Of a DNA stretch of 64,000 nucleotides, positions 30,248 to 56,790 are shown one piece after another. A program made the translations under genes and the position numbers. The notes below the pieces were generated by a model. It saw nothing but the letters and a program-made list of their open reading frames with translations. It was not told the origin of the DNA and did no database searches. The stretch's first letter is position 1. Every line of letters starts with the position of its first letter. The DNA is from Sanderia malayensis (Eukaryota; Cnidaria; Scyphozoa; Semaeostomeae; Pelagiidae). The stretch is taken from NCBI GenBank assembly GCA_013076295.1, contig RQOL01000658.1, positions 3,794,353 through 3,858,352 on the forward strand. Reading direction: 5' to 3'.

Positions 30248-30280
<33 letters not shown>

Positions 30281-32122
30281 TTTGATGTCATCCGACACTT
30301 AGCAAAGCAAAACAATGCTTTCAGAGGACACGACGAATCAGACACTGCAGAAAATCGCGGTAACTTTCTCGAGGAGCTGAACTTTCTCGCAAAGTACCAC
30401 CAGCCTCTTCAAAAATGGATACAGCAGCATCCCCAAAATGTGTCCTACTTTTCTCCAAATACCCAAAATGAAATGATAAGCGTTTTGAGTCAAGTAGTTA
30501 CAGAGAGAATTAAAGGTGAAGTCGCATACTCAAAGCACTTTTCGATTGAGTGCGATGAAGTTACATCTCATAAACGAGCATTCATGTCAGTCATTGTAAG
30601 ATATGTCTATGATTTCAGCATCTGGGAACGTTGCATCAAGTTGGAACGGGTTGATAGCATCAAAGGAAAAAATCTTGCAGAAATCATCATAGCCATACTA
30701 GAAGATATGAAATTCCCTATTGCAAATTTAGTGGGGAAGGGATTCGACGGTGCGAGTAACATGTCTGGGAAAGATGAGGGTGTCCAACAACATTTGACGG
30801 CTGCCGGTGCAACCAAATCAATCTACTTTCACTGTTTCGCCCACAGGCTCAATCTTATTTTGGAGAAAGGTGTGAGTACAGTTCCAGCAGTTCAAGATGT
30901 ATTCGATACCATAGGCTCCATATACCGCTATCTGGAAGGTTCTCCAAAGAGGCATGCGTTGTACGAAAGAAAACTGCGAGAAAAGGGAATAACAAAAGGG
31001 AAGATAGCCCTGCATTCACTTTCAGACACCAGATGGGCAGCTAAAAGTGATAACCTTGATACAGTAGTCAACACAATGCCAGCCATAATAGAGATGCTGA
31101 AAGAGATGTCAATTGAAGGTGAATCCGCAGCTGAGGGTTTGCTTGTGAGGATGCAGAAATTCAAGTTCATTTTAGCATGTTTTATCTTAAAGAAGTGCTT
31201 CGCTTTATGTAAATCTGTATCAGAATATTTACAGTTTAAAGAGATGGATCTTGTATCAGCTGTCTCTGGCATCCAGTCCTTGAAGCGAGCTCTACAAGAT
31301 CTCAGAAACGATGCAAAAATGGAGGAATTTGTTCAAGAAGCGGACAATTACTGCCAAGTGTCGCACCTGAAAGTGACGAATTTCGAAGAAGAAGGAATTT
31401 CAAAGAGGAAACGAACGATCCCAGCTCATTTTCGCGATGGCTCTGAAATCTTGTATGGCGAAAGCAGCGCTGTGCAAGAAGATCAACCAGATCCATCTGT
31501 GTACCAAAAGAATAGGTTCAGGAGAGATCTGTATTTTCCCTTCCTGGATCGACTCATCAGTGAGCTTGACAGAAGATTTTCTTCTCAGGCTTGCGAAATT
31601 TTGCTTCAAGCAAGCACATTCCACCCTACAAAGCTGATGGAAGACAACGTGGGGAAAGTCAAGCAGATTGCAGCTTTTTACGGCGTGGATAGTGAACGCG
31701 TTTGCAGTCAGTTTACGCTATTCTCAAAATCAACCGAAGTTGCACTCTGGAAAAAGGAATATGGCGATTATTTGAAGGAGAAGGAAAGAGCAGAGAAGGA
31801 TAAATCAATCCAAATGCCACAGACATGGTTGTGCCTTCCAACATTGCTGAAAATATTTGCCAAAAATGGATTAAGCAATCTCTTCCCGGATTTATTCGAA
31901 GTTGTTAAGATCATTGCTACATTGCCGGCAACAGTAGCATCTTGCGAAAGGGCACACAGTAAAGTGAAGATAATAAATACATACCTGCGTGCTTCAATGT
32001 CAGACCAACGCTTGGAGCATCTGATTAAGATTAGCATCGAAAGAGATATCGCCGAGAACATTGAACTGGACAGCCTTTTAGAGCTATTTAAAACCAGTGG
32101 GAATAGAAAACTTGCTTTGTAA
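30000..32122 (+). pseudogene. hAT transposase (zinc-finger TTF/ZMYM1 type), one nonsense codon
   Basis: An open reading frame follows an acceptor-like TTGTATTACAG. It starts with the end of a TTF-type zinc finger (GSSEQTFTREGFKQWKNATG) and reads REIVRVMLL, then a (ATGT)n-encoded stretch MYVCMYVCM and a TAA stop at 30275-30277, then continues in the same frame as IFDVIRHLAKQNNAFRGHDE up to 32122. The rest is a nearly complete hAT core: FSIECDEVT, VGKGFDGASNMSG (catalytic Asp), FHCFAHRLNL (the C-x2-H pair), SDTRWAAKSD, and the C-terminal dimerisation region SCERAHSKVKIINTYLR. Total about 700 residues. The N-terminal part of the zinc finger was not found. The single stop inside a microsatellite is the only clear lesion. 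Confidence 0.9.
30247..30277 (+). repeat. (ATGT)n microsatellite within the hAT coding frame
   Basis: About seven ATGT units between the codons for REIVRVMLL and IFDVIRHL. It inserts nine residues and a TAA. Confidence 0.85.
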
Positions 32123-39230: not shown

Positions 39231-39688
39231 TAGATCTTGTTTACAAGTCGCTCGACTTGAGTTGATATTTGACTTGCTTTTCCTATTTTTCTGACAATTC
39301 CCAATGCAATATCATTCAGAATGCATCAAAAATCTGAAGAAAAGATGAATTGAATTATGATTCTGCGGTTGTACATTCCCAATGCACAATACACGATACA
39401 CGTGTGTTAAAATTGTCCAGAAAACGATACAGATATTTGATTGCATGCATACGAAAATACTACAGATAATTGCTTCTTTTTCGTTAACTATTGGCTATCA
39501 AATGCAGATGTCTCAAACGCTTCAAACGCTTACACATGCAAGCATGCAGATGAAAGATGTCTGCATGCTTGCATGTGTAAGCGTGATGGAAAAATATAAG
39601 CAAAATATTGTGCATTCTATTCTATTTACTGGGCGAACTAAAATAAAAGTATAAGAGAAACAGAGAAACAGGAATGAACTTGAACCTA
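39231..39688 (+). repeat. Copy of the upstream region of the four-exon gene
   Basis: Matches 51530-51880 with moderate divergence (TCTTGTTTACAAGTCGCTCG / TTTGACTTGC, ATTGTGCATTCTATTCTATT, ACTGGGCGAACTAAAAT). Here it is joined directly to exon 4, so exons 1-3 are missing in this gene copy. Confidence 0.7.
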
Positions 39689-40654
39689 ATGCAAGATTTG
39701 ACCAGGTGAACAGTTACCTTAAAGATGTGGCAACACAAACAGAGGAAGAGTACATGAATATGTCAACAGAAACAGGATCAAACGAAGCAATAAACCCACA
39801 GTGCATAGCAGCTGAGAGTTGCATGGAAATTGACAACAGCACACAGAGCCGTTACAATTTGATGTTCAACCCCAGTGAGATTCGATTGACAAGCGAACGC
39901 ATGAATGAAGTAGAATCAATGGAAATCAGTCTTAATGAAGATATGATGGTACCGTTCTATAGCCAGATGCAGATTGGTTCTTGGCTGGATGTTATACGCT
40001 CCAGATTGCCAACACCAGTGCCAATGGATATAGACGAACCCATTGAAGCATTCTCAAATGCATGTGGGATTGCCAATAGCTGTAAGCAATGGAGTTTTGC
40101 GCCAGAAAGCAAGCTGTTTGTGCCAATTTTACTGCCTGAAAAGTACAGTGTAGAGAATGTTGAAGAAGGACGCCCTGGGCAATGGTTCTTCGAAGCTGGT
40201 AATAAGAGCAAAGATGCTACAGCTAGTAATACTCTATCTGATCCTGCACAGTTGAAGAATGGAGAGTATTCTTCCAGTTTCAAGAATGGAGGGTGTCCTT
40301 CCAGTTTCAAGAATGAAGGGCATTCTTCCAGTTTCAAGAAAAGGAAACACACGGAAGAAGCCGATAATACCAGCCAAGAATCTCGTGAAATGGGGTCTGG
40401 AAAAGTTCTCGAGATGGAAGAAAATATCAAAAAAATTGCGACTACTCCATCAGGAGTTGTGAAATTGAAGAATGGTGGCTGCTCTTGGAGTCTGAAGAGA
40501 AGTATCATTAAAAGGAAAAGCAATGAGCGGAATAATAAAGCGAAGATCAGTGGAAAAGTTCAGGAAGAAAGCCCTGAAAAGATTCATAAAACTTTGAAGA
40601 TGAGCAAACAGGTTGCGGCTGATGGTGTATCGGCAAACAAAGAATTAGGAGGAT
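39689..40654 (+). pseudogene. Partial copy A of the four-exon gene (5' part), cut by the palindromic element
   Basis: Encodes the equivalent of most of exon 4 of the gene at 52295-54695 in an intact frame (words VATQTEEEYMNMSTETG, LPTPVPMDIDEPIEAFSNA, NGEYSSSFKNGGCPSSFKNE). The reading ends KELGG and TAG; that stop is formed by the last T of the target site (40654) and the first two bases, AG, of the inserted element. The remaining coding end lies at 49168-49279. No ATG or upstream exons are present, so the copy was already truncated before the insertion. Confidence 0.85.
40649..40654. repeat. Target-site duplication, left (GAGGAT)
   Basis: GAGGAT directly before the element. The same six bases follow the element at 49168-49173, while the intact paralogue at about 54590 has a single copy (TTAGGAGGATGTTCATGG). 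Confidence 0.9.
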
Positions 40655-41390
40655 AGTAGGAGATGAAGTAGGTGTCCGAGGACACGCATGCGCAGTAGAA
40701 TGTGCTAAGATTACGCATGCGCGAGAATCTTCGAGAGTTGAAAAGTTCATGAACAGTAAAAAAATAATCGAAAACGACAGGTTGTGGAAAGTTAGTTTGA
40801 AGTTGCAAAACATCGTCAAAGCTGATAAAAAACCCATAAAAAGCTTGGAATTAACTAAAAAACGGTTTTGTTTATGAAAAAGATTTTTACACCAATAAAA
40901 AGAAAATCTCTTGATTATGTTGAATGAATTATTTCATATTTTTCATGCACTTATAAGATGATAGAAATTTGTTAAATAAATCGCAAGAAAACACAAAAAT
41001 ATCAAGGAACTGGCAAATTCACGTTCTCGGCTCGAGATTGAATTCAAAAAACCAATCAGAAACTTTCGAATGCGACGTTCGAATGTACGCGTCAAATCTC
41101 TGTCATGAGAAATGAGAAAGCAGAAATTTCTAGAACTTTTCCGAGGGGAAATCCCCTGACGTCACATTGAAAGATTTTTCTAGAAACAGAAAATCTCTGT
41201 AATCGGATTGGCTGATAGCCAAGATTTCGGGTCACTTTAAAACAAAACTTGAAATGGACATTATTCAAAACAAAATGTGCAAGCTGTTGAAGAAACTATT
41301 TTAACACGTTTCAAGAAGAAAGACGCCATGAAAAAGAGACCATTTTCTGCATTAGCAAACAATAATATCTAAACCTTTTTATAAGCATTG

Positions 41391-41891
41391 TTATATCCTA
41401 CTATATGGAAATGCTGGAGTACTATTAAATTCAAGTTCATTCACAGCAGCATCCTCAGAATCACTAGCTTCCTCTTCTTCGTCATTCTTTGCTTGACGTA
41501 TGATGAGATATTTTCTTTTCTCAATAGCATAATCTAAGGCCTCTTGCATATCCATATCATCTTCCCTCTGTGCTTTTTGCATCGTTGCTATAACTGCAGT
41601 TACAACAGCGTCATTTTCAAAACTTCTATTATATAAAAATTTACGTTTGAAAACTTGCAATATGTTTTCATCTTCATCCACTTCCTTACGCATAGAAGGC
41701 CATACATTCCCTAAAGGAAGATCCTCATCAGTGTTGACAGTTTCATCATTATCATGATCACTTTCAACTTCTATCTCATCATCTGAGCCAGACTCTTCAC
41801 TGCTCTCCTCGTGCATCTCTTCTTCATGTCGTGTAACATTACTTTTATACTTGGAAGAAAATTCACATTGATCACATTTATACTGACTCAT
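41391..41891 (-). CDS. Zinc-finger-like acidic protein, left copy
   Basis: 166 residues from the ATG at 41891; an upstream in-frame TTG is not a credible start. Residues 6-27 fit a C2H2 finger (YKCDQCEFSSKYKSNVTRHE, then EEMH; C-x2-C-x12-H-x4-H). An acidic serine/glutamate/aspartate tract follows (ESSEESGSDDEIEVESDHDN), then a probably helical middle part (NILQVFKRKFLYNRSFEND, AVVTAVIATMQKAQREDDMD) and an acidic tail ending TPAFPYSRI. The protein is identical to the right copy. It could bind the element's own repeats or ends, but this is only inference. A TATA box lies at 41961-41968, about 70 bases upstream. No family was recognised beyond the finger. Confidence 0.75.
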   Translation of the reverse strand: MSQYKCDQCEFSSKYKSNVTRHEEEMHEESSEESGSDDEIEVESDHDNDETVNTDEDLPLGNVWPSMRKEVDEDENILQVFKRKFLYNRSFENDAVVTAVIATMQKAQREDDMDMQEALDYAIEKRKYLIIRQAKNDEEEEASDSEDAAVNELEFNSTPAFPYSRI

Positions 41892-41960
41892 GGCTAGCTG
41901 TTTACTTATAATTACCAACTAACTCTTAAATCCCTGAATTCTAGAGTCTCAACTCGCTTG

Positions 41961-41968
41961 ATTTTATA
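41961..41968 (-). promoter_or_regulatory. TATA box of the left zinc-finger-like gene
   Basis: TATAAAAT on the minus strand, 70 bases before the ATG at 41891. Confidence 0.55.
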
Positions 41969-41984
41969 GATAAGTTCCTCCATT

Positions 41985-43859
41985 CAATATGATACGGGAG
42001 AGGGACTAAATGATATTTCCGAATAAACAGAACTTAATCCTTGGATAATGCTAACTAATCCTTATTAATGACTACTCCATTCTAGCTAATCATTCCTAGT
42101 CATTACCTTCTCAATACTTGATCCTCAATACATCCTTGATTATCATTCCTAGTCATTACCTGATCATTAGTTGATCCTTCACTGATCCTTACTAATCCTT
42201 ACCAATCATACCTATTCATTACCTGATCATCAGTAGATCCTTAACTGATCTTTGATAATCCTTACAGTCATTACTGATCATCAGTTGATCCTTAACTGAT
42301 CCTTACTAATCCTAACCAATCATACTTAATCATTAGCAGATCATCAGCTGATCCTTAACTGATCCTCGCTAATCCTAACCAATCATACATAATCATTAGC
42401 AGATCATCAGCTGATCCTTAACTGATCCTCGCTAATCCTAACCAATCATACATAATCATTACCTTATCATTACTTGATCCTTAACTGATCCTTACTAATC
42501 CTAACCAATCATACTTAATCATTAGCAGATCATCAGCTGATCCTTAACTGATCCTCACTAATCCTAACCAATCATACATAATCATTACCTTATCATTACT
42601 TGATCCTTAACTGATCCTCGCTAATCCTAACCAATCATACATAATCATTACCTTATCATTACTTGATCCTTAACTGATCCTAACCAATCATACTTAATCA
42701 TTAGCAGATCATCAGCTGATCCTTAACTGATCCTCACTAATCCTAACCAATCATACATAATCATTACCTTATCATTACTTGATCCTTAACTGATCCTTAC
42801 TAATCCTAACCAATCATAATTAGTCATTCCTAATCATTACCTTATCATTACTTGATCCTTAACTGATCCTAACCAATCATAATTAATCATTCCTAATCAA
42901 TACCTTATCATTACTTGATCCTCACTAATCCTTACCAATCATAATTAATCATTCCTAATCATTACCTTATCATTACTTGATCCTTAACTGATCCTTGCCA
43001 ATCATACATAATCATTACCTTATCATTACTTGATCCTTAACTGATCCTTGCCAATCATACATAATCATTACCTTATCATTACTTGATCCTTAACTGATCC
43101 TTGCCAATCATACATAATCATTACCTTATCATTACATGATCCTTACTAATCCTTACCAATCATAATTAATCACTCCTAATCATTACCTTATCATTATTTG
43201 ATCCTTAACTGATCCTTACTAATCCTAACCAATCATAATTAATCATTCCTAATCATTACCTTATCATTACTTGATCCTCAACTGATCCTTGCCAATCCAA
43301 ACTATTCATTAATAATCATTCCTAATCATTACCAATCATTACTTGATCCTTAACTGATCCTCACTAATCCTAACCAATCATAATTAATCATTCCTAATCA
43401 TTACCTTATCATTACTTGATCCTTAACTGATCCTTACCAAACCAAACTATTCATTACTAATCATTCCTAATCATTACCAATCATTACTTGATCCTTAACT
43501 GATCCTCACTAATCCTAACTAAGCATTCCTAATCATTACCTTATCATTACTTGATCCTTAGCTGATCCTCACCAATCCTTACCAATCATACATAATCATT
43601 ACCTGATCATCAGTTGATCCTTAGCTGATCCTCACTAATCCTTACCAATCATACTTAATCATTAGCAGATCATCAGTTGATCCTTAACTGATCCTTGCTA
43701 GTCCTTATCAATCTTTCCTAATCATCATCTGATCATCAGTTGATCCTTATTAGTCTTGGCTTTATCCATTCAACATTTATCCTTACTAATCCTGACTAAT
43801 AAATTCTTATCATAACCCAATCCTTATTAATCCTTGCCTAGATTTTATTAATCTTCAGC
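41985..43859. repeat. Left tandem-repeat arm (ATC/GAT repeat, ~10.5-bp spacing)
   Basis: About 1.9 kb of the reverse-complement repeat: TGATCC, TAATCC, CAATCA, TAATCA words spaced 10 or 11 bases. Higher-order blocks of about 63 bp recur, for example ACTGATCCTCGCTAATCC. It has no open frame because stops fall in every unit. Confidence 0.9.
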
Positions 43860-43932
43860 AGTACTGTGGAGGGTGTGGAGGGTGTTCAGTACAGAACAGG
43901 GATCAACTGAAGATTAATAAAATCTAGGCAAG
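43834..43932. repeat. Centre of the palindrome
   Basis: CTTGCCTAGATTTTATTAAT... (43834-43859) and its perfect complement (43907-43932) flank a 47-base spacer, which contains GTGGAGGGTGTGGAGGGTG and a smaller AGTACTG / CAGTAC pair. Confidence 0.9.
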
Positions 43933-46900
43933 GATTAATAAGGATTGGGTTATGATAAGAATTTATTAGTCAGGATTAGTAAGGATAAATGTTGAATGGA
44001 TAAAGCCAAGACTAGTAAGGATCAACTGATGATCAGATGATGATTAGGAAAGATTGATAAGGACTAGCAAGGATCAGTTAAGGATCAACTGATGATCTGC
44101 TAATGATTAAGTATGATTGGTAAGGATTAGTGAGGATCAGTTAAGGATCAACTGATGATCATGTAATGATTATGTATGATTGGTAAGGATTGGTGAGGAT
44201 CAGCTAAGGATCAACTGATGATCAGGCAATGATTATGTATGATTGGTAAGGATTGGTGAGGATCAGCTAAGGATCAAGTAATGATTGGTAATGATTAGGA
44301 ATGATTAGTAATGAATAGTTTGGTTTGGTAAGGATCAGTTAAGGATCAAGTAATGATAAGGTAATGATTAGGAATGATTAATTATGATTGGTTAGGATTA
44401 GTGAGGATCAGTTAAGGATCAAGTAATGATTGGTAATGATTAGGAATGATTAGTAATGAATAGTTTGGATTGGCAAGGATCAGTTGAGGATCAAGTAATG
44501 ATAAGGTAATGATTAGGAATGATTAATTATGATTGGTTAGGATTAGTAAGGATCAGTTAAGGATCAAATAATGATAAGGTAATGATTAGGAGTGATTAAT
44601 TATGATTGGTAAGGATTAGTAAGGATCATGTAATGATAAGGTAATGATTATGTATGATTGGCAAGGATCAGTTAAGGATCAAGTAATGATAAGGTAATGA
44701 TTATGTATGATTGGCAAGGATCAGTTAAGGATCAAGTAATGATAAGGTAATGATTAGGAATGATTAATTATGATTGGTAAGGATTAGTGAGGATCAAGTA
44801 ATGATAAGGTATTGATTAGGAATGATTAATTATGATTGGTTAGGATCAGTTAAGGATCAAGTAATGATAAGGTAATGATTAGGAATGACTAATTATGATT
44901 GGTTAGGATTAGTAAGGATCAGTTAAGGATCAAGTAATGATAAGGTAATGATTATGTATGATTGGTTAGGATTAGTGAGGATCAGTTAAGGATCAGCTGA
45001 TGATCTGCTAATGATTAAGTATGATTGGTTAGGATCAGTTAAGGATCAAGTAATGATAAGGTAATGATTATGTATGATTGGTTAGGATTAGCGAGGATCA
45101 GTTAAGGATCAAGTAATGATAAGGTAATGATTATGTATGATTGGTTAGGATTAGTGAGGATCAGCTAAGGATCAACTGATGATCAGGCAATGATTATGTA
45201 TGATTGGTAAGGATTGGTGAGGATCAGCTAAGGATCAAGTAATGATTGGTAATGATTAGGAATGATTAGTAATGAATAGTTTGGTTTGGTAAGGATCAGT
45301 TAAGGATCAAGTAATGATAAGGTAATGATTAGGAATGATTAATTATGATTGGTTAGGATTAGTGAGGATCAGTTAAGGATCAAGTAATGATTGGTAATGA
45401 TTAGGAATGATTAGTAATGAATAGTTTGGATTGGCAAGGATCAGTTGAGGATCAAGTAATGATAAGGTAATGATTAGGAATGATTAATTATGATTGGTTA
45501 GGATTAGTAAGGATCAGTTAAGGATCAAATAATGATAAGGTAATGATTAGGAGTGATTAATTATGATTGGTAAGGATTAGTAAGGATCATGTAATGATAA
45601 GGTAATGATTATGTATGATTGGCAAGGATCAGTTAAGGATCAAGTAATGATAAGGTAATGATTATGTATGATTGGCAAGGATCAGTTAAGGATCAAGTAA
45701 TGATAAGGTAATGATTATGTATGATTGGTTAGGATTAGCGAGGATCAGTTAAGGATCAAGTAATGATTGGTAATGATTAGGAATGATTAGTAATGAATAG
45801 TTTGGATTGGCAAGGATCAGTTGAGGATCAAGTAATGATAAGGTAATGATTAGGAATGATTAATTATGATTGGTTAGGATTAGTAAGGATCAGTTAAGGA
45901 TCAAATAATGATAAGGTAATGATTAGGAGTGATTAATTATGATTGGTAAGGATTAGTAAGGATCATGTAATGATAAGGTAATGATTATGTATGATTGGCA
46001 AGGATCAGTTAAGGATCAAGTAATGATAAGGTAATGATTATGTATGATTGGCAAGGATCAGTTAAGGATCAAGTAATGATAAGGTAATGATTATGTATGA
46101 TTGGTTAGGATTAGTGAGGATCAGTTAAGGATCAGCTGATGATCTGCTAATGATTAAGTATGATTGGTTAGGATCAGTTAAGGATCAAGTAATGATAAGG
46201 TAATGATTATGTATGATTGGTTAGGATTAGCGAGGATCAGTTAAGGATCAAGTAATGATAAGGTAATGATTATGTATGATTGGTTAGGATTAGTGAGGAT
46301 CAGCTAAGGATCAACTGATGATCAGGCAATGATTATGTATGATTGGTAAGGATTGGTGAGGATCAGCTAAGGATCAAGTAATGATTGGTAATGATTAGGA
46401 ATGATTAGTAATGAATAGTTTGGTTTGGTAAGGATCAGTTAAGGATCAAGTAATGATAAGGTAATGATTAGGAATGATTAATTATGATTGGTTAGGATTA
46501 GCGAGGATCAGTTAAGGATCAAGTAATGATTGGTAATGATTAGGAATGATTAGTAATGAATAGTTTGGATTGGCAAGGATCAGTTGAGGATCAAGTAATG
46601 ATAAGGTAATGATTAGGAATGATTAATTATGATTGGTTAGGATTAGTAAGGATCAGTTAAGGATCAAATAATGATAAGGTAATGATTAGGAGTGATTAAT
46701 TATGATTGGTAAGGATTAGTAAGGATCATGTAATGATAAGGTAATGATTATGTATGATTGGCAAGGATCAGTTAAGGATCAAGTAATGATAAGGTAATGA
46801 TTAGGAATGATTAATTATGATTGGTAAGGATTAGTGAGGATCAAGTAATGATAAGGTATTGATTAGGAATGATTAATTATGATTGGTTAGGATCAGTTAA

Positions 46901-47780
46901 GGATCAAGTAATGATAAGGTAATGATTAGGAATGACTAATTATGATTGGTTAGGATTAGTAAGGATCAGTTAAGGATCAAGTAATGATAAGGTAATGATT
47001 ATGTATGATTGGTTAGGATTAGTGAGGATCAGTTAAGGATCAGCTGATGATCTGCTAATGATTAAGTATGATTGGTTAGGATCAGTTAAGGATCAAGTAA
47101 TGATAAGGTAATGATTATGTATGATTGGTTAGGATTAGCGAGGATCAGTTAAGGATCAAGTAATGATAAGGTAATGATTATGTATGATTGGTTAGGATTA
47201 GTGAGGATCAGTTAAGGATCAGCTGATGATCTGCTAATGATTAAGTATGATTGGTTAGGATTAGTAAGGATCAGTTAAGGATCAAGTAATGATAAGGTAA
47301 TGATTATGTATGATTGGTTAGGATTAGCGAGGATCAGTTAAGGATCAGCTGATGATCTGCTAATGATTATGTATGATTGGTTAGGATTAGCGAGGATCAG
47401 TTAAGGATCAGCTGATGATCTGCTAATGATTAAGTATGATTGGTTAGGATTAGTAAGGATCAGTTAAGGATCTACTGATGATCAGCTAATGGTTAGGTAT
47501 GATTGGCTAGGATTATCAAGGATTAGTTAAAGATCAACTGATGATCAGTAATGACTGTAAGGATTATCAAAGATCAGTTAAGGATCTACTGATGATCAGG
47601 TAATGAATAGGTATGATTGGTAAGGATTAGTAAGGATCAGTGAAGGATCAACTAATGATCAGGTAATGACTAGGAATGATAATCAAGGATGTATTGAGGA
47701 TCAAGTATTGAGAAGGTAATGACTAGGAATGATTAGCTAGAATGGAGTAGTCATTAATAAGGATTAGTTAGCATTATCCA
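43907..47780. repeat. Right tandem-repeat arm, about 2 kb longer than the left
   Basis: The same repeat in the opposite orientation: subunits such as GGATCAGTTAA, GGATCAAGTAA, TGATAAGGTAA (11 bp) and TGATTATGTA, TGATTGGTTA, GGATTAGCGA (10 bp) make a 63-bp higher-order unit. Landmarks that occur once in the left arm occur several times here: AGGAGTGATTAATTATG at about 44588, 45549, 45924 and 46687, and AATAGTTTGGATTGGC at about 44459, 45420, 45796 and 46559. This shows amplification of blocks of roughly 375, 760 and 960 bp. Confidence 0.9.
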
Positions 47781-47853
47781 AGGATTAAGTTCTGTTTATT
47801 CGGAAATATCATTTAGTCCCTCTCCCGTATCATATTGAATGGAGGAACTTATC

Positions 47854-47861
47854 TATAAAAT
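47854..47861 (+). promoter_or_regulatory. TATA box of the right zinc-finger-like gene
   Basis: TATAAAAT 70 bases before the ATG at 47931, in the mirror position of the left copy. Confidence 0.55.
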
Positions 47862-47930
47862 CAAGCGAGTTGAGACTCTAGAATTCAGGGATTTAAGAGT
47901 TAGTTGGTAATTATAAGTAAACAGCTAGCC

Positions 47931-48431
47931 ATGAGTCAGTATAAATGTGATCAATGTGAATTTTCTTCCAAGTATAAAAGTAATGTTACACGACATGAAG
48001 AAGAGATGCACGAGGAGAGCAGTGAAGAGTCTGGCTCAGATGATGAGATAGAAGTTGAAAGTGATCATGATAATGATGAAACTGTCAACACTGATGAGGA
48101 TCTTCCTTTAGGGAATGTATGGCCTTCTATGCGTAAGGAAGTGGATGAAGATGAAAACATATTGCAAGTTTTCAAACGTAAATTTTTATATAATAGAAGT
48201 TTTGAAAATGACGCTGTTGTAACTGCAGTTATAGCAACGATGCAAAAAGCACAGAGGGAAGATGATATGGATATGCAAGAGGCCTTAGATTATGCTATTG
48301 AGAAAAGAAAATATCTCATCATACGTCAAGCAAAGAATGACGAAGAAGAGGAAGCTAGTGATTCTGAGGATGCTGCTGTGAATGAACTTGAATTTAATAG
48401 TACTCCAGCATTTCCATATAGTAGGATATAA
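47931..48431 (+). CDS. Zinc-finger-like acidic protein, right copy
   Basis: Identical in protein sequence to the left copy (166 residues; C2H2-like finger at residues 6-27, acidic tract, helical middle, acidic tail). The two genes point away from the centre of the element, toward its ends. Perfect identity between the arms means either very recent insertion or continuing gene conversion between them. Confidence 0.75.
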   Translation: MSQYKCDQCEFSSKYKSNVTRHEEEMHEESSEESGSDDEIEVESDHDNDETVNTDEDLPLGNVWPSMRKEVDEDENILQVFKRKFLYNRSFENDAVVTAVIATMQKAQREDDMDMQEALDYAIEKRKYLIIRQAKNDEEEEASDSEDAAVNELEFNSTPAFPYSRI

Positions 48432-49167
48432 CAATGCTTATAAAAAGGTTTAGATATTATTGTTTGCTAATGCAGAAAATGGTCTCTTTTTCATGGCGTC
48501 TTTCTTCTTGAAACGTGTTAAAATAGTTTCTTCAACAGCTTGCACATTTTGTTTTGAATAATGTCCATTTCAAGTTTTGTTTTAAAGTGACCCGAAATCT
48601 TGGCTATCAGCCAATCCGATTACAGAGATTTTCTGTTTCTAGAAAAATCTTTCAATGTGACGTCAGGGGATTTCCCCTCGGAAAAGTTCTAGAAATTTCT
48701 GCTTTCTCATTTCTCATGACAGAGATTTGACGCGTACATTCGAACGTCGCATTCGAAAGTTTCTGATTGGTTTTTTGAATTCAATCTCGAGCCGAGAACG
48801 TGAATTTGCCAGTTCCTTGATATTTTTGTGTTTTCTTGCGATTTATTTAACAAATTTCTATCATCTTATAAGTGCATGAAAAATATGAAATAATTCATTC
48901 AACATAATCAAGAGATTTTCTTTTTATTGGTGTAAAAATCTTTTTCATAAACAAAACCGTTTTTTAGTTAATTCCAAGCTTTTTATGGGTTTTTTATCAG
49001 CTTTGACGATGTTTTGCAACTTCAAACTAACTTTCCACAACCTGTCGTTTTCGATTATTTTTTTACTGTTCATGAACTTTTCAATTCTCGAAGATTCTCG
49101 CGCATGCGTAATCTTAGCACATTCTACTGCGCATGCGTGTCCTCGGACACCTACTTCATCTCCTACT

Positions 49168-49279
49168 GAGGATGTTCATGGAGTTTGAAGCGAAATGGTT
49201 CCAAAAGAGATCTCGATGAACAGGATAATAATAATTATAGCTGTCTTCAAGAAAGTCGGAAGAAGAGAAAATTGATGTA
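49168..49279 (+). pseudogene. Partial copy A of the four-exon gene (3' end)
   Basis: Starts with the second GAGGAT and continues the coding end of the interrupted exon: CSWSLKRNGSKRDLDEQDNN, NYSCLQESRKKRKLM and TAA at 49277-49279. Identical to the end of the intact gene at about 54590-54695. Confidence 0.85.
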
Positions 49280-49690
49280 AAAAGACTTCTTTGGACATTT
49301 AGAAACATTTTAAAAGACATTAAATATAAAGACAAACCTGTTACAATAGCAGGCTTTAGTGTTATTGAAGAGAAAGCAACTCTAGAGAAATAGAAAGAGA
49401 GTATACTAGAATAAGCATACTAATAGAGACAGTTCTACGATTGCAGCCTTAACAAAGACAGTGTTGCGATGGACAAATCTAAAGCAGCCATGCTACGTTT
49501 ATAGACTTGAGAGAGACAATGCTGCATTGGTAGAAGAAACTCTTAATGTACGAAAAGCTTTTTGTTTATATTCTCTGTGGGGCTATAAATTCTCTCTAGA
49601 AGCTCAGCAGAAGAGAGCACAAATCTTTTTGCTGCGTGAGCTGGTTGAACTACTGTTTTGTTTTTCAAAACATTTCCATTTCCAAATTTG
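49280..49690 (+). repeat. Downstream flank shared with the intact gene
   Basis: Matches 54696-55165 (GCATACTAATAGAGACAG, TTTATATTCTCTGTGGGG, CTCAGCAGAAGAGAGCAC), apart from a ~60-base stretch at 54970-55035 present only in the intact copy. Confidence 0.8.
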
Positions 49691-50030
49691 ATTTTTCTAA
49701 CCCTAGCCTAATGTATGATAGGTAATGTATTTCAGTTGGGGCAAGAGCTCGCCAGGTGTTAACTTTTGAAATACTTATGCTAGAAGGCTGGGAATGGTCT
49801 CAAACTGATCGGAAGGTGCTAATTAGTAGGATTCGACCCATTGTGAGTGACATTTCGTTCTATTTCCAAATTTGGGAATTCTAACCTTAGCCTAATGTAT
49901 GATAGGTAATGTATTTCAGTTGGGGCAAGAGCTCGCCAGGTGTCAACTTTTGAAGTACTTATGCTAGAAGACTGGGAAAAGTCTCAAACTGATCAGAAGG
50001 GCCTAATTATTAAGCTTCGACCCTTTGTTT
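49690..50030. repeat. ~180-bp satellite, two copies
   Basis: Two tandem copies (GTATGATAGGTAATGTATTT, GGCAAGAGCTCGCCAGG). The block is cut at about 50028, where gene copy B begins. Confidence 0.8.
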
Positions 50031-50620
50031 TTTTGGGTATTATCTTCCATCTTGAAAACTTTCCCAGACCCCATTTCACGAGATTCTTGGCTGATATTAT
50101 CGGCTTCTTCCGTGTGTTTCCTTTTCTTGAAACTGGAAGAATGCCCTTCATTCTTGAAACTGGAAGAATACTCTACATTCTTGAAACTGGAAGAATACTC
50201 TCCATTCTTCAACTGTGCATGATCAGATAGAGAACTACTAGCTGTAGCGCCTTGGTCCTTATTTCCAGCTTCGAAGAACCATTTCCCGGGCGGTCCTGCT
50301 TCAACACTCTTTACACTGTACTTTTCAGGCAGTAAAATTGGCACAAACAGCTTACTTTCTGGCGCAAAACTCCATTGCTTACAGCTATTGTCAACCCCAA
50401 ATGCATTTGAGAATGCTTCAATGGGTTCGTCTATATCCATTGGCACTGGTGTTGGCAATCTGGAGCGCATAACATCCAGCCAAGAACCAACCTGCGTCTG
50501 GCTGTTGAACGGTAGCATCATTTCTTCATTAAGACTGATTTCCATTGATTCTTCCTCAGCCATGCGTTCGCTTGTTAATCGAATCTCACTGGAGTTGAAC
50601 ATCAAATTGCAACAGCTAAG
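50030..50620 (-). pseudogene. Partial copy B of the four-exon gene, inverted
   Basis: A minus-strand fragment equivalent to about 53785-54370 of the intact gene. It reads MMFNSSEIRLTSERMAEEES, LPTPVPMDIDEPIEAFSNAF, NGEYSSSFKNVEYSSSFKNE and stops near KVFKMEDNTQKN, where homology ends at the satellite. The frame is open across the fragment. It has no promoter or upstream exons. Confidence 0.8.
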
Positions 50621-52294: not shown

Positions 52295-54695
52295 ATGCAT
52301 CCAAGTGAAAGCAGTAACGATTGCTCCGATTCCATGAGCGAATTATGGTTTGGATTATTGTTTACGTTCATTTATTAATCATTTGGTTAGGAATATTGTT
52401 TTTGTTACACGTTACTCATCGATTAATTTGATGTTTTGCAGTGAGCTCTTTGGAAAAATGACGCTTTCAAGAAAGGATGGATTAGAGAAAATATGCAGGA
52501 ATGCAGAAAAATGGAGCGATGAGCAAGTTGCAAGAGGGTTCTGCAGTCAACAGAATAATTCCAACAACGATTGTGGTATCATGGAAGAAATGCAGAAGTG
52601 CAAAACTGAAGCATCGCATGGCAATGGCATCATCAAAACTGATAAACTATTTGAAGAATGGAGTGAATATCAGTTTGATTTCAGCTCTGATTCTGAATCG
52701 GGATATGAAGCTGGATCAGAATCAGACTCAGATGATAAGTTCGAATATAAGTTACTTGACGAAGAATTGGAAGAAAACAATGGCAAAGAAAGGTAATATC
52801 AAAACACATGCACAAAATAATATATACTGAGGGGAGGAGGGGACAATAGTATGGCAACAATAATAAAAGTGACGTCTAGCAGGGGGCCTTTGAACATTGG
52901 CACACTTGACAAGTGAAAAAACTGCAAATTTCTTGAATTATAATATGAATTCCAACTTGTGCATTATTTTTCCAAAAAATAAAAAGGTATTATTTTGTTA
53001 CCAGGATGAATGAGGAGAAGGCTGTCCATGAAAACGAGGCTAATCAAAGCGTTGGTATCGAAATCGAGGCCGCAGATCAGCCAACAAAAGCAGCAGACCA
53101 ACTTGACGATTATTCAAGCGATGATATCGATAATGACGATGATTGCGATGATAATCATAATAATAATGCTGACAGAGACGTAAATGATTCTGAATCTGAT
53201 GACATTGATGTCCCAGAAGCAACTGCTCCATTGGATATGAGAAAAACAAGTTGCAATGCCCAATCTGTTAATGGTGAATATATTTTTGTTTGTTTGTAAA
53301 GTGGTTGAAACAATAAGAATAGTAGTTTATAAGAAATGTCATACGACTACACTTGTGTTTAACGTGTAGTTGTATTAATGTCACTGGTCCATTGGATATA
53401 TGTTCAAGTGGCACATGATCAAATCATCATTGAACTAATGACAATTTCAATCATATTTTCTTTCAGAATCAAATACGAACTTGGACAGTTCCGAATATTC
53501 ATCAGATGATTCTCGTAGTAACATCCTTCGCATCATCCGTGACATTCGAAACAGAACCAATAACAATGCAGCTCCAAGCAGAGATGTCACACGCGAGGCT
53601 GAAGCCAGTCAAATTGTGCTTGATGCAAGATTTGACCAGGTGAACAGTTACCTAAAAGACGTGGCAACACAAACAGAGGAGAAATACATGAATATATCAA
53701 CACAAACAGAATCAAACGAAGCAATAAACCCACAGTGCATTGCAGCTGAGAGTTGCATGGAAATTGAAAACAACACACAGAGCTGTTGTAATTTGATGTT
53801 CAACTCCCTGGAGCCTCAATTGACAAGCAAAAGCATAGCTGAGGAAGAATCGATGGAAATCAGTCTTAATGAAGAAATGCTGGTACCGTTCTATAGCCAG
53901 ATGCACACTTGTAATTGGCTGGATGTTATGCGCTTCAGATTGCCAACACCAGTGCCAATGGATATAGACGAACCCATTGAAGCATTCTCAAATGCATTTG
54001 GGGTTGACAATAGCTGTAAGCAATGGAGTTTTGCGCCAGAAAGCAAGCTGTTTGTGCCAATTTTACTGCCTGAAAAGTACAGTGTAGAGAATGTTGAAGA
54101 AGGACGCCCTGGGCAATGGTTCTTCGAAGCTGGTAATAAGAGCCAAGACGCTACAGCTAGTAATACTCTATCTGATCCTGCACAGTTGAAGAATGGAGAG
54201 TATTCTTCCAGTTTCAAGAATGGAGGGTATTCTTCCAGTTTCAAGAATGAAGGGCATTCTTCCAGTTTCAAGAAAAGGAAACACACGGAAGAAGCCGATA
54301 ATACCAGCCAAGAATCTCGTGAAATGGGGTCTGGAAAAGTTCTCGAGATGGAAGAAAATATCAAAAAAATTGCGACTACTCCATCAGGAGTTGTGAAATT
54401 GAAGAATGGTGGCTGCTCTTGGAGTCTGAAGAGAAGTATCATTAAAAGGAAAAGCAATGAGCGGAATAATAAAGCGAAGATCAGTGGAAAAGTTCAGGAA
54501 GAAAGCCCTGAAAAGATTCATAAAACTTTGGAGATGAGCAAACAGGTTGCGGCTGATGGTGTATCGGCAAACAAAGAATTAGGAGGATGTTCATGGAGTT
54601 TGAAGCGAAATGGTTCCAAAAGAGATCTCGATGAACAGGATAATAATAATTATAGCTGTCTTCAAGAAAGTCGGAAGAAGAGAAAATTGATGTAA
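52295..54695 (+). CDS. Unrecognised four-exon gene (633 aa), intact copy
   Basis: Exons 52295-52347, 52442-52792, 53005-53273 and 53467-54695 have GT-AG introns of 94, 212 and 193 bases. Phases match at every junction, giving 1,902 coding bases. The N-terminal third is acidic (SSDSESGYEAGSESDSDD; SSDDIDNDDDCDDN; LDSSEYSSDDS near residues 230-240). The C-terminal third is basic and ends KKRKLM. A short motif repeats three times near residues 465-495 (EYSSSFKN, GYSSSFKN, GHSSSFKK), and a related one (GGCSWSLKR) twice near 538 and 598. LPTPVPMDIDEPIEAF and QWSFAPESKLFVPILLPE lie in between. A nuclear protein is plausible (basic KKRK/KRK clusters). No known domain is recognised. Two partial copies lie at 39689-49279 and 50030-50620. 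Confidence 0.7.
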
Positions 54696-55165: not shown

Positions 55166-56790
55166 CCAAATTTGATTTTTCTAACCCTAGCCTAATGTAT
55201 GATAGGTAGCTAATGTATTTCAGTTGGGGCAAGAGCTCGCCAGGTGTCAACTTTTGAAATACTTATGCTAGAAGGCTGGGAATGGTCTCAAACTGATCGG
55301 AAGGTGCTAATTAGTAGGGTTCGACCCATTGTGAGTGACTGACATTTCGATCTATTTCCAAATTTGATTTTTCTAACCCTAGCCTAATGTATGATAGGTA
55401 ATGTATTTCAGTTGGGGCAAGAGCTCGCCAGGTGTCAACTTTTGAAATAATTATGCTAGAAGGCTGGGAAAGGTCTCTAACTGATCAGAAGGTGCTATTT
55501 AGTAAGATTCGACCCATTGTGAGTGACATTTCGATCTATTTCCAAATTTGATTTATCTAACCCTAGTTTAACGTATGATAGGTAATGTAATTTACTTGGG
55601 GCAAGAGCTCGCCATTGGTCAACTTTTGAAATATTTATGGTAGATGGCTGGGAAAGGTCTCAAACTGATCAGAAGGTCCTAATTAATAGGATTTGACCCT
55701 TTGTGATTGACATTTCCATCTATTTCGAAACTTGATTTTTCTAATCCTAGCTTAAGGCCTTCTAGTCATTTTGAGACAATTTTGACCTCTTTAGGACAAT
55801 TGGTTCAAAAGTTGGTCCTGAGGGCTAGCTGCAAAAAGTGAATTACTTTATGTATACTCCATGGACGTTCAAGCTCCCAAAATGACATTTTGAAATAGAC
55901 CGAAATTTAGCGAACAAATAATCGATACCTACTAATTAGGGCCTTCCGATCACTTTGAGACAAGTTTCAGCTCTTTAGGACAATTGGTTCAAAAGTTGGT
56001 CCCGAGGGCTAGCTGCAAAAAGTGAATTACTTTATGTATACTCCATGGACGTTCAAGCTCCCAAAATGACATTTTGAAATAGACCGAAATTTAGCGAACA
56101 AATAATCGATACCTACTAATTAGGGCCTTCCGATCATTTTGAGACAAGTCTCAGCTCTTTAGGACAATTGGTTCAAAAGTTGGTCCTGAGGGCTAGCTGC
56201 AAAAAGTGAATTACTTTATGTATACTCCATGAACGTTCAAATTCCCAAAATGACATTTTGAAACAGAGCGAAATTTGCAAACAAATAGTCAAAATCTACT
56301 AATTACGGCCTGCTGATCATTTTGAGACAATTTTGACCTCTCTAGGACAATTGGTTCAAAAGTTAGTCCCCAGGGCAGACTGCAAGAAGTGAATTACTTT
56401 ATGTAGCTATACTCCATGAGCGTTCAAGCTCCCAAAATGACATTTTGAAATTGACCGAAATTTAGCGAACAAATAATCGATACCTACTAATTAGGGCCCT
56501 CCGATCATTTTGAGACAAGTTTCAGTTCTCTAGGACAATTGGTTCAAAAGTTGGTCCCGAGGGCTAGCTGCAAAACGTGAATTACTTTAGCTACGTAGCT
56601 ATACTCCATGAAAGTTCAAATTCCCAAAATGACATTTTGAAATAGACCAAAATTTGCCAAACAAACAGTCGAAGCTTACTAATTAGGGCCTTCTGATCAT
56701 TTTGAGACAAGTTTCGGCTCTCTAGGACAGCTGATTCAAAGGTTTTAGTGTCTGGGACTGGTCGCGACAAGTGAATTAGTTTATATCACA
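55165..56790. repeat. ~180-bp satellite, right block, with an orientation switch
   Basis: About three copies in the orientation seen at 49690 (GCAAGAGCTCGCCAGGTG) are followed, from about 55750, by five or six copies of the opposite orientation (GGCCTTCCGATCATTTTGAG, AAGTTGGTCCCGAGGGCTAG). This mirrors the order in the left block. Confidence 0.85.

What the first reader, a model, noticed from the sequence alone, without database searches (positions are those of the whole stretch)
40655..49167. An 8.5-kb palindromic transposable element with a proven empty site
Seen directly: exact inverted ends, a 6-bp duplication GAGGAT on both sides, and an intact paralogue at about 54590 that has the uninterrupted sequence. 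The element is one giant inverted repeat and encodes no transposase, polymerase or integrase. A 6-bp duplication and AG...CT ends occur in Polinton/Maverick elements; repeats inside long ends occur in foldback elements. The combination, with a gene in each end, does not match a class I know. Class membership is inference.
Basis: partly seen in the sequence, partly recalled or inferred. Interest (0 to 1): 0.92.

Follow-up and report, generated by a model that had tools for sequence, protein, structure and literature searches.

The report
Palindromic satellite of Polinton transposons
This 8.5-kb palindromic mobile element belongs to a family with at least 34 mirror-image copies in this genome; it has the same ends and 6-bp target duplications as complete virus-like Polinton transposons, which likely move it, and its two arms match each other far better than they match most other copies, likely because one arm renews the other when the element is copied.

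Summary
Window 40655-49167 (8513 bp) is a near-palindrome flanked by GAGGAT; a paralogue near 54590 carries the uninterrupted sequence (492 of 501 positions identical). Its class is not unknown: its outer 465 bp are the terminal repeat of Polinton/Maverick elements of the same genome, which encode an rve integrase, a chromodomain, an A32-like ATPase, family-B polymerase ORFs and a weakly matching adenovirus-type protease. It is a non-autonomous Polinton derivative, and multicopy: 34 of 40 scored places match across both sides of the palindrome centre, and 17 of 20 non-autonomous copies with both ends readable have perfect 6-bp duplications. Each arm carries an outward zinc-finger gene (72 of 80 near-full-length copies lack a stop) and a minisatellite. 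The unexpected result is concerted evolution of arms: in 19 elements, 8255 informative site counts group the arms of one element and 8 group arms across elements, although the 14 centres aligned share one founder spacer. I infer that one arm templates or repairs the other in hairpin-forming, protein-primed replication. My searches of open-licence papers found no non-autonomous or palindromic Polinton.

The parts
40649..40654 (.). left copy of the 6-bp target-site duplication GAGGAT
   Evidence: sequence
40655..41119 (+). left outer 465 bp, shared with Polinton-gene-bearing copies (their terminal inverted repeat)
   Evidence: blastn 95.9% to C303a over 466 columns, 87-93% to C303b and C866b
41391..41891 (-). 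left copy of the zinc-finger gene (166 aa from its ATG: one C2H2 finger, acidic linker, conserved C-terminal domain predicted helical)
   Evidence: (PF13909, 1.3e-6)
41960..41969 (-). possible TATA box (CTATAAAATC) about 70 bp upstream of the left ATG; by eye, untested
   Evidence: sequence
42087..43749 (.). left minisatellite (units near 63, 73 and 53 bp; 10-11 bp sub-repeats shown for the right array)
40655..43858 (+). left arm of the palindrome, 3204 bp
43859..43906 (.). asymmetric 48-bp centre spacer, shared with the other 13 centres aligned, in longer and shorter forms
43907..49167 (-). right arm of the palindrome, 5261 bp, longer through duplications inside the minisatellite
44016..47680 (.). 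right minisatellite
47853..47862 (+). possible TATA box upstream of the right ATG (mirror of 41960-41969); untested
   Evidence: mirror position; arms gapless over the first 1600 bp
47931..48431 (+). right copy of the zinc-finger gene, identical to the left copy over the 498 bp compared
48703..49167 (-). right outer 465 bp (terminal inverted repeat)
49168..49173 (.). right copy of the 6-bp target-site duplication GAGGAT
   Evidence: sequence
39655..40656 (+). host repeat-family reading frame cut short by the insertion
53442..54695 (+). paralogous reading frame carrying the uninterrupted target sequence

Best explanation
This is a non-autonomous palindromic derivative of the Polinton/Maverick transposons of the same genome, likely copied and inserted by their enzymes acting on the shared ends, with one arm likely templating or repairing the other at each round. 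Shown: ends shared with Polinton-gene-bearing elements; 6-bp target duplications; at least 34 palindromic copies with a common centre; near-complete concerted evolution of the two arms of each element. Inferred: integration by a Polinton rve integrase; protein-primed copying from the ends by Polinton PolB; folding of the displaced strand into a full-length hairpin (an extreme form of the adenovirus panhandle) in which the arms pair, so that mismatch repair or snap-back copying makes both arms alike before integration. After insertion the arms drift apart. The zinc-finger protein is predicted to bind DNA and to act in trans, perhaps on the 10-11 bp phased minisatellite; its role is untested.
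For: Same ends: of 40 scored end hits (296 candidates), 5 lie on the three Polinton-gene-bearing copies that I read (C866b two, C303a one, C303b two); the window's outer 465 bp are nearest to C303a (3.5% differences). Partner genes: C866b (15.3 kb, both ends, TSD TGCCTG) has rve (3.8e-11), Endonuclease_7 and Fic domains above cut-off and Peptidase_C5 below its cut-off; C303a has rve plus Chromo; C303b has a Pox_A32-like ATPase ORF above cut-off. In C866b the ORF with Endonuclease_7 has an exonuclease motif HNLKGYD and a neighbouring ORF has YMDTDS; of the 120 listed homologues of that ORF, 22 carry PF03175 by my hand count. TSDs: perfect 6 bp in 8 of 8 and 10 of 13, together 18 of 21. Centres: 34 of 40 scored places (71 candidates) match at least 210 of the 221 query bases and so span both sides of the spacer; the spacer is the same, sizes varying, in 14 centres aligned, one of them cut short (15 rows, window in twice). 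Arms: 8255 informative counts by element against 5 and 3 across, element grouping winning in 171 of 171 element pairs; within-element divergence median 0.24%, between 4.12%; 0 of 10000 random pairings reach the observed mean. Arms of the 3 elements with imperfect TSDs are more diverged than those of 16 with perfect ones (p 0.002 exact, 0.006 asymptotic), so divergence seems to follow insertion.
Against: No movement, hairpin or terminal protein was observed. Gene conversion between arms in the chromosome could also homogenise them soon after insertion. For 4 of 19 elements an arm is slightly closer to another element than to its partner. PF03175 itself did not score on the local polymerase ORFs and the capsid match is weak (Capsid_N, 0.062). 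In 6 of the 40 scored centre places only part of the centre matches. C303a was read from one end only, and the two end hits of C303b lie on the same strand, so only C866b is shown complete with both ends. The genome-wide PolB search did not complete.
Confidence: 0.72

Rival explanations
1. Same non-autonomous Polinton, but the arms are kept alike by gene conversion between the two arms in the chromosome, as in sex-chromosome palindromes, and not by the replication intermediate.
For: Long closely spaced inverted repeats are good conversion substrates (general knowledge). The partner arm is the nearest arm in 15 of 19 elements.
Against: Arms do diverge, up to 2.2%, and most in the elements with imperfect target duplications, as expected if homogenisation stops at insertion. 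The number of such elements is small (3).
Confidence: 0.25
2. A foldback element (Foldback, Galileo or Tetris kind) mobilised by a cut-and-paste transposase, with Polinton-like ends by coincidence.
For: Long inverted repeats holding tandem repeats, as described for Galileo and Tetris (PMC3573991 passages, PMC4079207 abstract).
Against: 465 bp of 87-96% identity to Polinton-gene-bearing copies of the same genome and 6-bp duplications.
Confidence: 0.02
3. Assembly artefact: a palindromic or chimeric read built into the contig.
For: Exact palindromes are a known artefact of some long-read libraries (general knowledge).
Against: The same centre spanned at 34 places, different 6-bp duplications outside, element-specific arm variants.
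Confidence: 0.01
4. The ends are repeatedly swapped with full Polintons, so that the satellite keeps up with its helper.
For: The outer 200 bp differ by 11.3% and 200-465 by 5.4% between elements, inner non-coding 560-730 by 1.9%; the window's end pairs with C303a (bootstrap 94, SH-aLRT 90; not a starred branch).
Against: The AU test does not reject one clade of the five Polinton end rows (p 0.18); the Polinton-gene-bearing copies also show faster ends (roughly 5-11% differences) than their main interior blocks over 1.4 kb (2.4-3.7%).
Confidence: 0.3

Closest known systems
Polinton/Maverick self-synthesising transposons (polintoviruses)
   Same: ends AG...CT with a 465-bp terminal repeat shared with local gene-bearing copies; 6-bp target duplication. 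PMC8097293 (passages seen) uses 6-bp TSDs and (AGT)2//(ACT)2 ends as criteria
   Different: 8.5 kb instead of the 15-20 kb given in PMC4028283 (passage seen); no Polinton core gene seen; nearly the whole element is inverted repeat
Foldback-like elements: Galileo (P superfamily) and Tetris of Drosophila
   Same: long inverted repeats with internal tandem repeats; non-autonomous copies sharing ends with another element (PMC3573991 passages, PMC4079207 abstract)
   Different: Polinton ends and 6-bp duplications; a gene inside each arm; arms of 3.2 and 5.3 kb against about 1.26 kb as the longest Galileo repeat in the passages seen
Adenovirus panhandle replication and symmetric defective genomes
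   Same: protein-primed linear DNA whose displaced strand can pair its own ends (recalled; I saw only the title of a 1988 panhandle paper in the reference list of PMC9863843)
   Different: here the pairing region would be the whole element; not observed, only inferred
Tlr elements of Tetrahymena
   Same: Polinton-related; once suggested to be a non-autonomous Polinton derivative (PMC4028283, passage seen)
   Different: Tlr carries its own integrase, ATPase and capsid genes (PMC4028283 passages)
MITEs and other deletion derivatives
   Same: ends of an autonomous element, no mobility gene
   Different: kilobases long, a gene in duplicate, one shared palindrome centre

Membership tests
Polinton/Maverick (as non-autonomous member) | 6-bp target-site duplication | tested here: met
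   18 of 21 elements with both ends readable, window included
Polinton/Maverick (as non-autonomous member) | AG...CT termini and terminal inverted repeat shared with local gene-bearing copies | tested here: met
   outer 465 bp 87-96% identical to the ends of C866b, C303a and C303b
Polinton/Maverick (as autonomous member) | own protein-primed PolB, rve integrase, ATPase, protease, capsid genes | tested here: not met
   none seen among the ORFs of the element by eye; such genes lie on other elements with the same ends
Polinton/Maverick (as autonomous member) | length 15-20 kb | tested here: not met
   8513 bp; gene-bearing copy C866b is about 15.3 kb
Polinton/Maverick | terminal protein linked to the 5' ends, protein-primed copying | not testable with these tools
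   needs extrachromosomal DNA
Foldback/Galileo/Tetris | long inverted repeats with internal tandem repeats | tested here: met
Foldback/Galileo/Tetris | ends of a P-superfamily or other cut-and-paste element | tested here: not met
   ends are those of Polintons
MITE | short, non-coding | tested here: not met
   8.5 kb with a gene; 72 of 80 near-full-length gene copies in the genome lack a stop

The most novel reading that the evidence does not exclude
A satellite of polintoviruses whose whole genome is one hairpin. Each arm is a complete gene-bearing half, a single arm would be enough to rebuild the element, and both are re-made from one at every round. It would be a self-correcting palindromic replicon that hijacks Polinton integrase and polymerase and encodes only a zinc-finger protein in duplicate, binding its own phased minisatellite to control copying, packaging or the helper.
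Probability: 0.35. Interest if true: 0.85.

Novelty: new variant of a known kind. Interest (0 to 1): 0.68.

Why it matters
Polinton replication has rarely been observed directly, and their satellites are hardly described (both recalled). A multicopy palindromic family with clear concerted evolution of its arms offers a natural record of the replication intermediate: arm divergence could date insertions as LTR divergence does, and the copies with no difference in the aligned arms (4 of 19) point to recent activity. It would also be a virus-satellite relationship inside a eukaryote genome, with a gene family of unknown role: 96 proteins at E 0.001 in public data, the window's near-identical ones included.

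Tried and rejected
Assembly artefact, foldback kinship and MITE: rejected as above. Cargo gene as a captured host gene: the own-genome protein search showed no separate host homologue; its listed hits (the list was cut) are copies or fragments at 75% identity or more. Cargo gene as a gene of the local Polintons: no convincing match in the ORFs of the Polinton pieces held (best E 0.15). Three large copies (C788, C859, C829) looked like autonomous relatives but carry the palindrome centre and nested insertions. Relatives in viral contigs: none for the zinc-finger protein or for the integrase. Structure of the zinc-finger protein: model mean pLDDT 71, C-terminal helices well predicted; no fold match at E 0.001 or better in PDB or viral libraries; among the 60 best of 85 solved-structure matches the best stretch lies in the N-terminal finger and its edge. 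Selection on the gene: pooled pN/pS 0.52 over 21 representative copies of 24 (C866a, C859d and C829e had no full gap-free gene and were left out); 28 non-synonymous to 12 synonymous distinct variants, binomial p 0.044: weak constraint at most. End swapping: suggestive only. Two elements list one stop in each arm's gene (C829 885733/890168; C303 5813945/5816698), which would suggest that the gene is not needed in cis, but I did not check that the stops sit at the same codon. A first reading, that matches in both orientations show each place to be palindromic, was wrong, because the query itself is palindromic; I now count only places that span both sides (34 of 40). Not obtained: more helper ends, divergent gene copies, a genome-wide PolB count, and the host's identity.
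Full report
What is there. The element spans 40655-49167 with ends AGTAGGAG...CTCCTACT and a 6-bp duplication GAGGAT. The arms are 3204 and 5261 bp around a 48-bp asymmetric spacer; they differ at 1 of the first 1600 positions, and the right arm is longer because its minisatellite holds internal duplications. The minisatellite has units near 63, 73 and 53 bp made of 10-11 bp sub-repeats (autocorrelation peaks at 63, 73, 11 and 10 in the right array). Each arm carries one 166-aa gene pointing outward, with a C2H2 finger (PF13909, 1.3e-6). The target was a repetitive host reading frame; a paralogue shows the uninterrupted sequence at 98%.

A family, not a single oddity. The end has 40 scored hits from 296 candidates. 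The centre query (221 bases, both sides of the spacer) was scored at 40 places from 71 candidates. At 34 of the 40 the match covers at least 210 bases and so spans both sides: these are palindromic around the centre. The other 6 match only part; of these, C817 and C913 have two gene-bearing arms by other calls. Matches in both orientations were listed too, but a palindromic query gives those even to a single arm, so I do not count them. The copy C622 is palindromic from end to end (6237 bp, 99.5%). In 14 centres aligned (15 rows, the window in twice, one row cut short) the spacer is the same asymmetric sequence in long and short forms: the palindrome most likely arose once. The gene has 80 hits covering at least 170 of its 175 query positions, 72 without a stop inside (counted by hand, whose list was cut at the bottom).

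Class. Elements with the same ends include Polinton-gene-bearing copies. C866b (about 15.3 kb, both ends seen, duplication TGCCTG) encodes an rve integrase, an ORF with a sub-threshold adenovirus-protease match, a Fic-domain ORF and polymerase ORFs; C303a (one end read) has rve plus chromodomain; C303b (two end hits on the same strand) has an A32-like ATPase ORF. The polymerase ORFs did not score against PF03175, but one has a HNLKGYD exonuclease motif and a neighbour has YMDTDS (motifs recalled). In the protein database 4887 of 7988 scored candidates reach E 1e-10 with the first of these ORFs, and 22 of the 120 listed carry PF03175 by my hand count. A capsid match is only hinted at (Capsid_N, 0.062). 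The window shares its first 465 bp with these copies at 87-96%. Target duplications are perfect in 18 of 21 elements with both ends readable: 8 of 8, one of them C866b, and 10 of 13; there 5 further elements of 18 lacked one readable end and are not counted. So this is a non-autonomous Polinton derivative.

Arms evolve together. I aligned 24 elements with two arms; 17 of 24 arm pairs are sisters in the tree. For the tests I dropped five elements (C807, C859c, C913, C829d, C453) because an arm is cut short or an end was not found. For the other 19, over 171 element pairs, 8255 informative site counts group the arms by element, and 5 and 3 support the two possible cross groupings. These counts are not independent, since elements share history. 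Within-element divergence has median 0.24% (range 0-2.20), between-element 4.12%; the own partner is nearest in 15 of 19, the exceptions being C323, C616, C815 and C859; 0 of 10000 random pairings reach the observed mean. If the palindrome was founded once, arms without homogenisation should group across elements, one side with one side. They do not, so one arm has overwritten the other in each lineage. Arms of the 3 elements with imperfect duplications are more diverged than those of the 16 with perfect ones (Mann-Whitney p 0.002 exact, 0.006 asymptotic, with ties), which fits homogenisation before or at insertion followed by drift.

How it likely works (inferred). Polinton integrase would recognise the shared ends and make the 6-bp duplication; protein-primed PolB would copy inward from either end. 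A displaced strand of this element could fold along its whole length, which a normal Polinton could do only over its terminal repeat. In that hairpin the arms pair; repair of mismatches, or snap-back copying at the centre, would make both arms alike. This extends the adenovirus panhandle idea (recalled) from the terminal repeat to the entire element. Chromosomal gene conversion is the main rival.

Ends against inner arm. Between elements the outer 200 bp differ by 11.3% on average, 200-465 by 5.4%, inner non-coding 560-730 by 1.9%, the gene by 2.2%. The window's end is nearest to C303a. This could mean that satellite ends are exchanged with helper ends. The AU test does not support it (p 0.18), and the Polinton-gene-bearing copies also have faster ends than main interior blocks, so I leave it open.

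The gene. The protein belongs to a wider family: 96 proteins at E 0.001 among 7980 scored candidates, with a C-terminal domain around MDFxEALDYAxDKRKFLIxR; the hits that name an organism are from the corals Oculina and Porites. Its C-terminal part is predicted helical and has no fold match. Selection inside the genome is weakly purifying at most. P0049 of this family and the Polinton polymerase P0216 both list a longest contig of 9124 bases, perhaps the same contig: a lead that the gene came from a full Polinton.

Literature. Searches for non-autonomous or mini Polinton/Maverick phrases gave 0 papers, and for palindromic or hairpin transposon phrases 1 paper, unrelated by its title and abstract start, in an open-licence library only; the rows listed held related but no matching titles. 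Passages were seen of PMC8097293, PMC6431247, PMC2871265, PMC3573991, PMC4028283 and PMC9863843 (one reference-list passage), and the abstract and outline of PMC4079207. Repbase is not searchable here and may hold non-autonomous Polintons.

Noticed in passing
L013:2207-2761: The Polinton C866b carries a Fic/DOC-domain ORF (PF02661, 7.7e-9), unusual as Polinton cargo as far as I recall.
   Followed up: no
G000 C432:108455-127174: Four zinc-finger gene copies in the same orientation at 4.88-kb steps, then one reversed: perhaps a tandem array of partial elements.
   Followed up: no
L009/L010, L011/L012, L015/L016: Three palindromic copies hold nested insertions with inverted ends; the one in C859 has a DDE transposase ORF, the one in C788 a SAM-domain ORF.
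   Followed up: partly
P0072, P0083 (Oculina patagonica): Two family members with near-identical C-terminal parts, two gene numbers apart in a coral genome, possibly another inverted pair.
   Followed up: no
P0049, P0216: A zinc-finger family member and a Polinton polymerase both list a longest contig of 9124 bp, perhaps the same contig.
   Followed up: no
window 49675-50158 and 55207-55834: 184-188-bp spaced repeats shared by host paralogue copies around the insertion; the region is a repeated cluster.
   Followed up: no
window 30278-32122: A 614-aa hAT-type transposase ORF (DUF4371 and hAT dimerisation domains).
   Followed up: no
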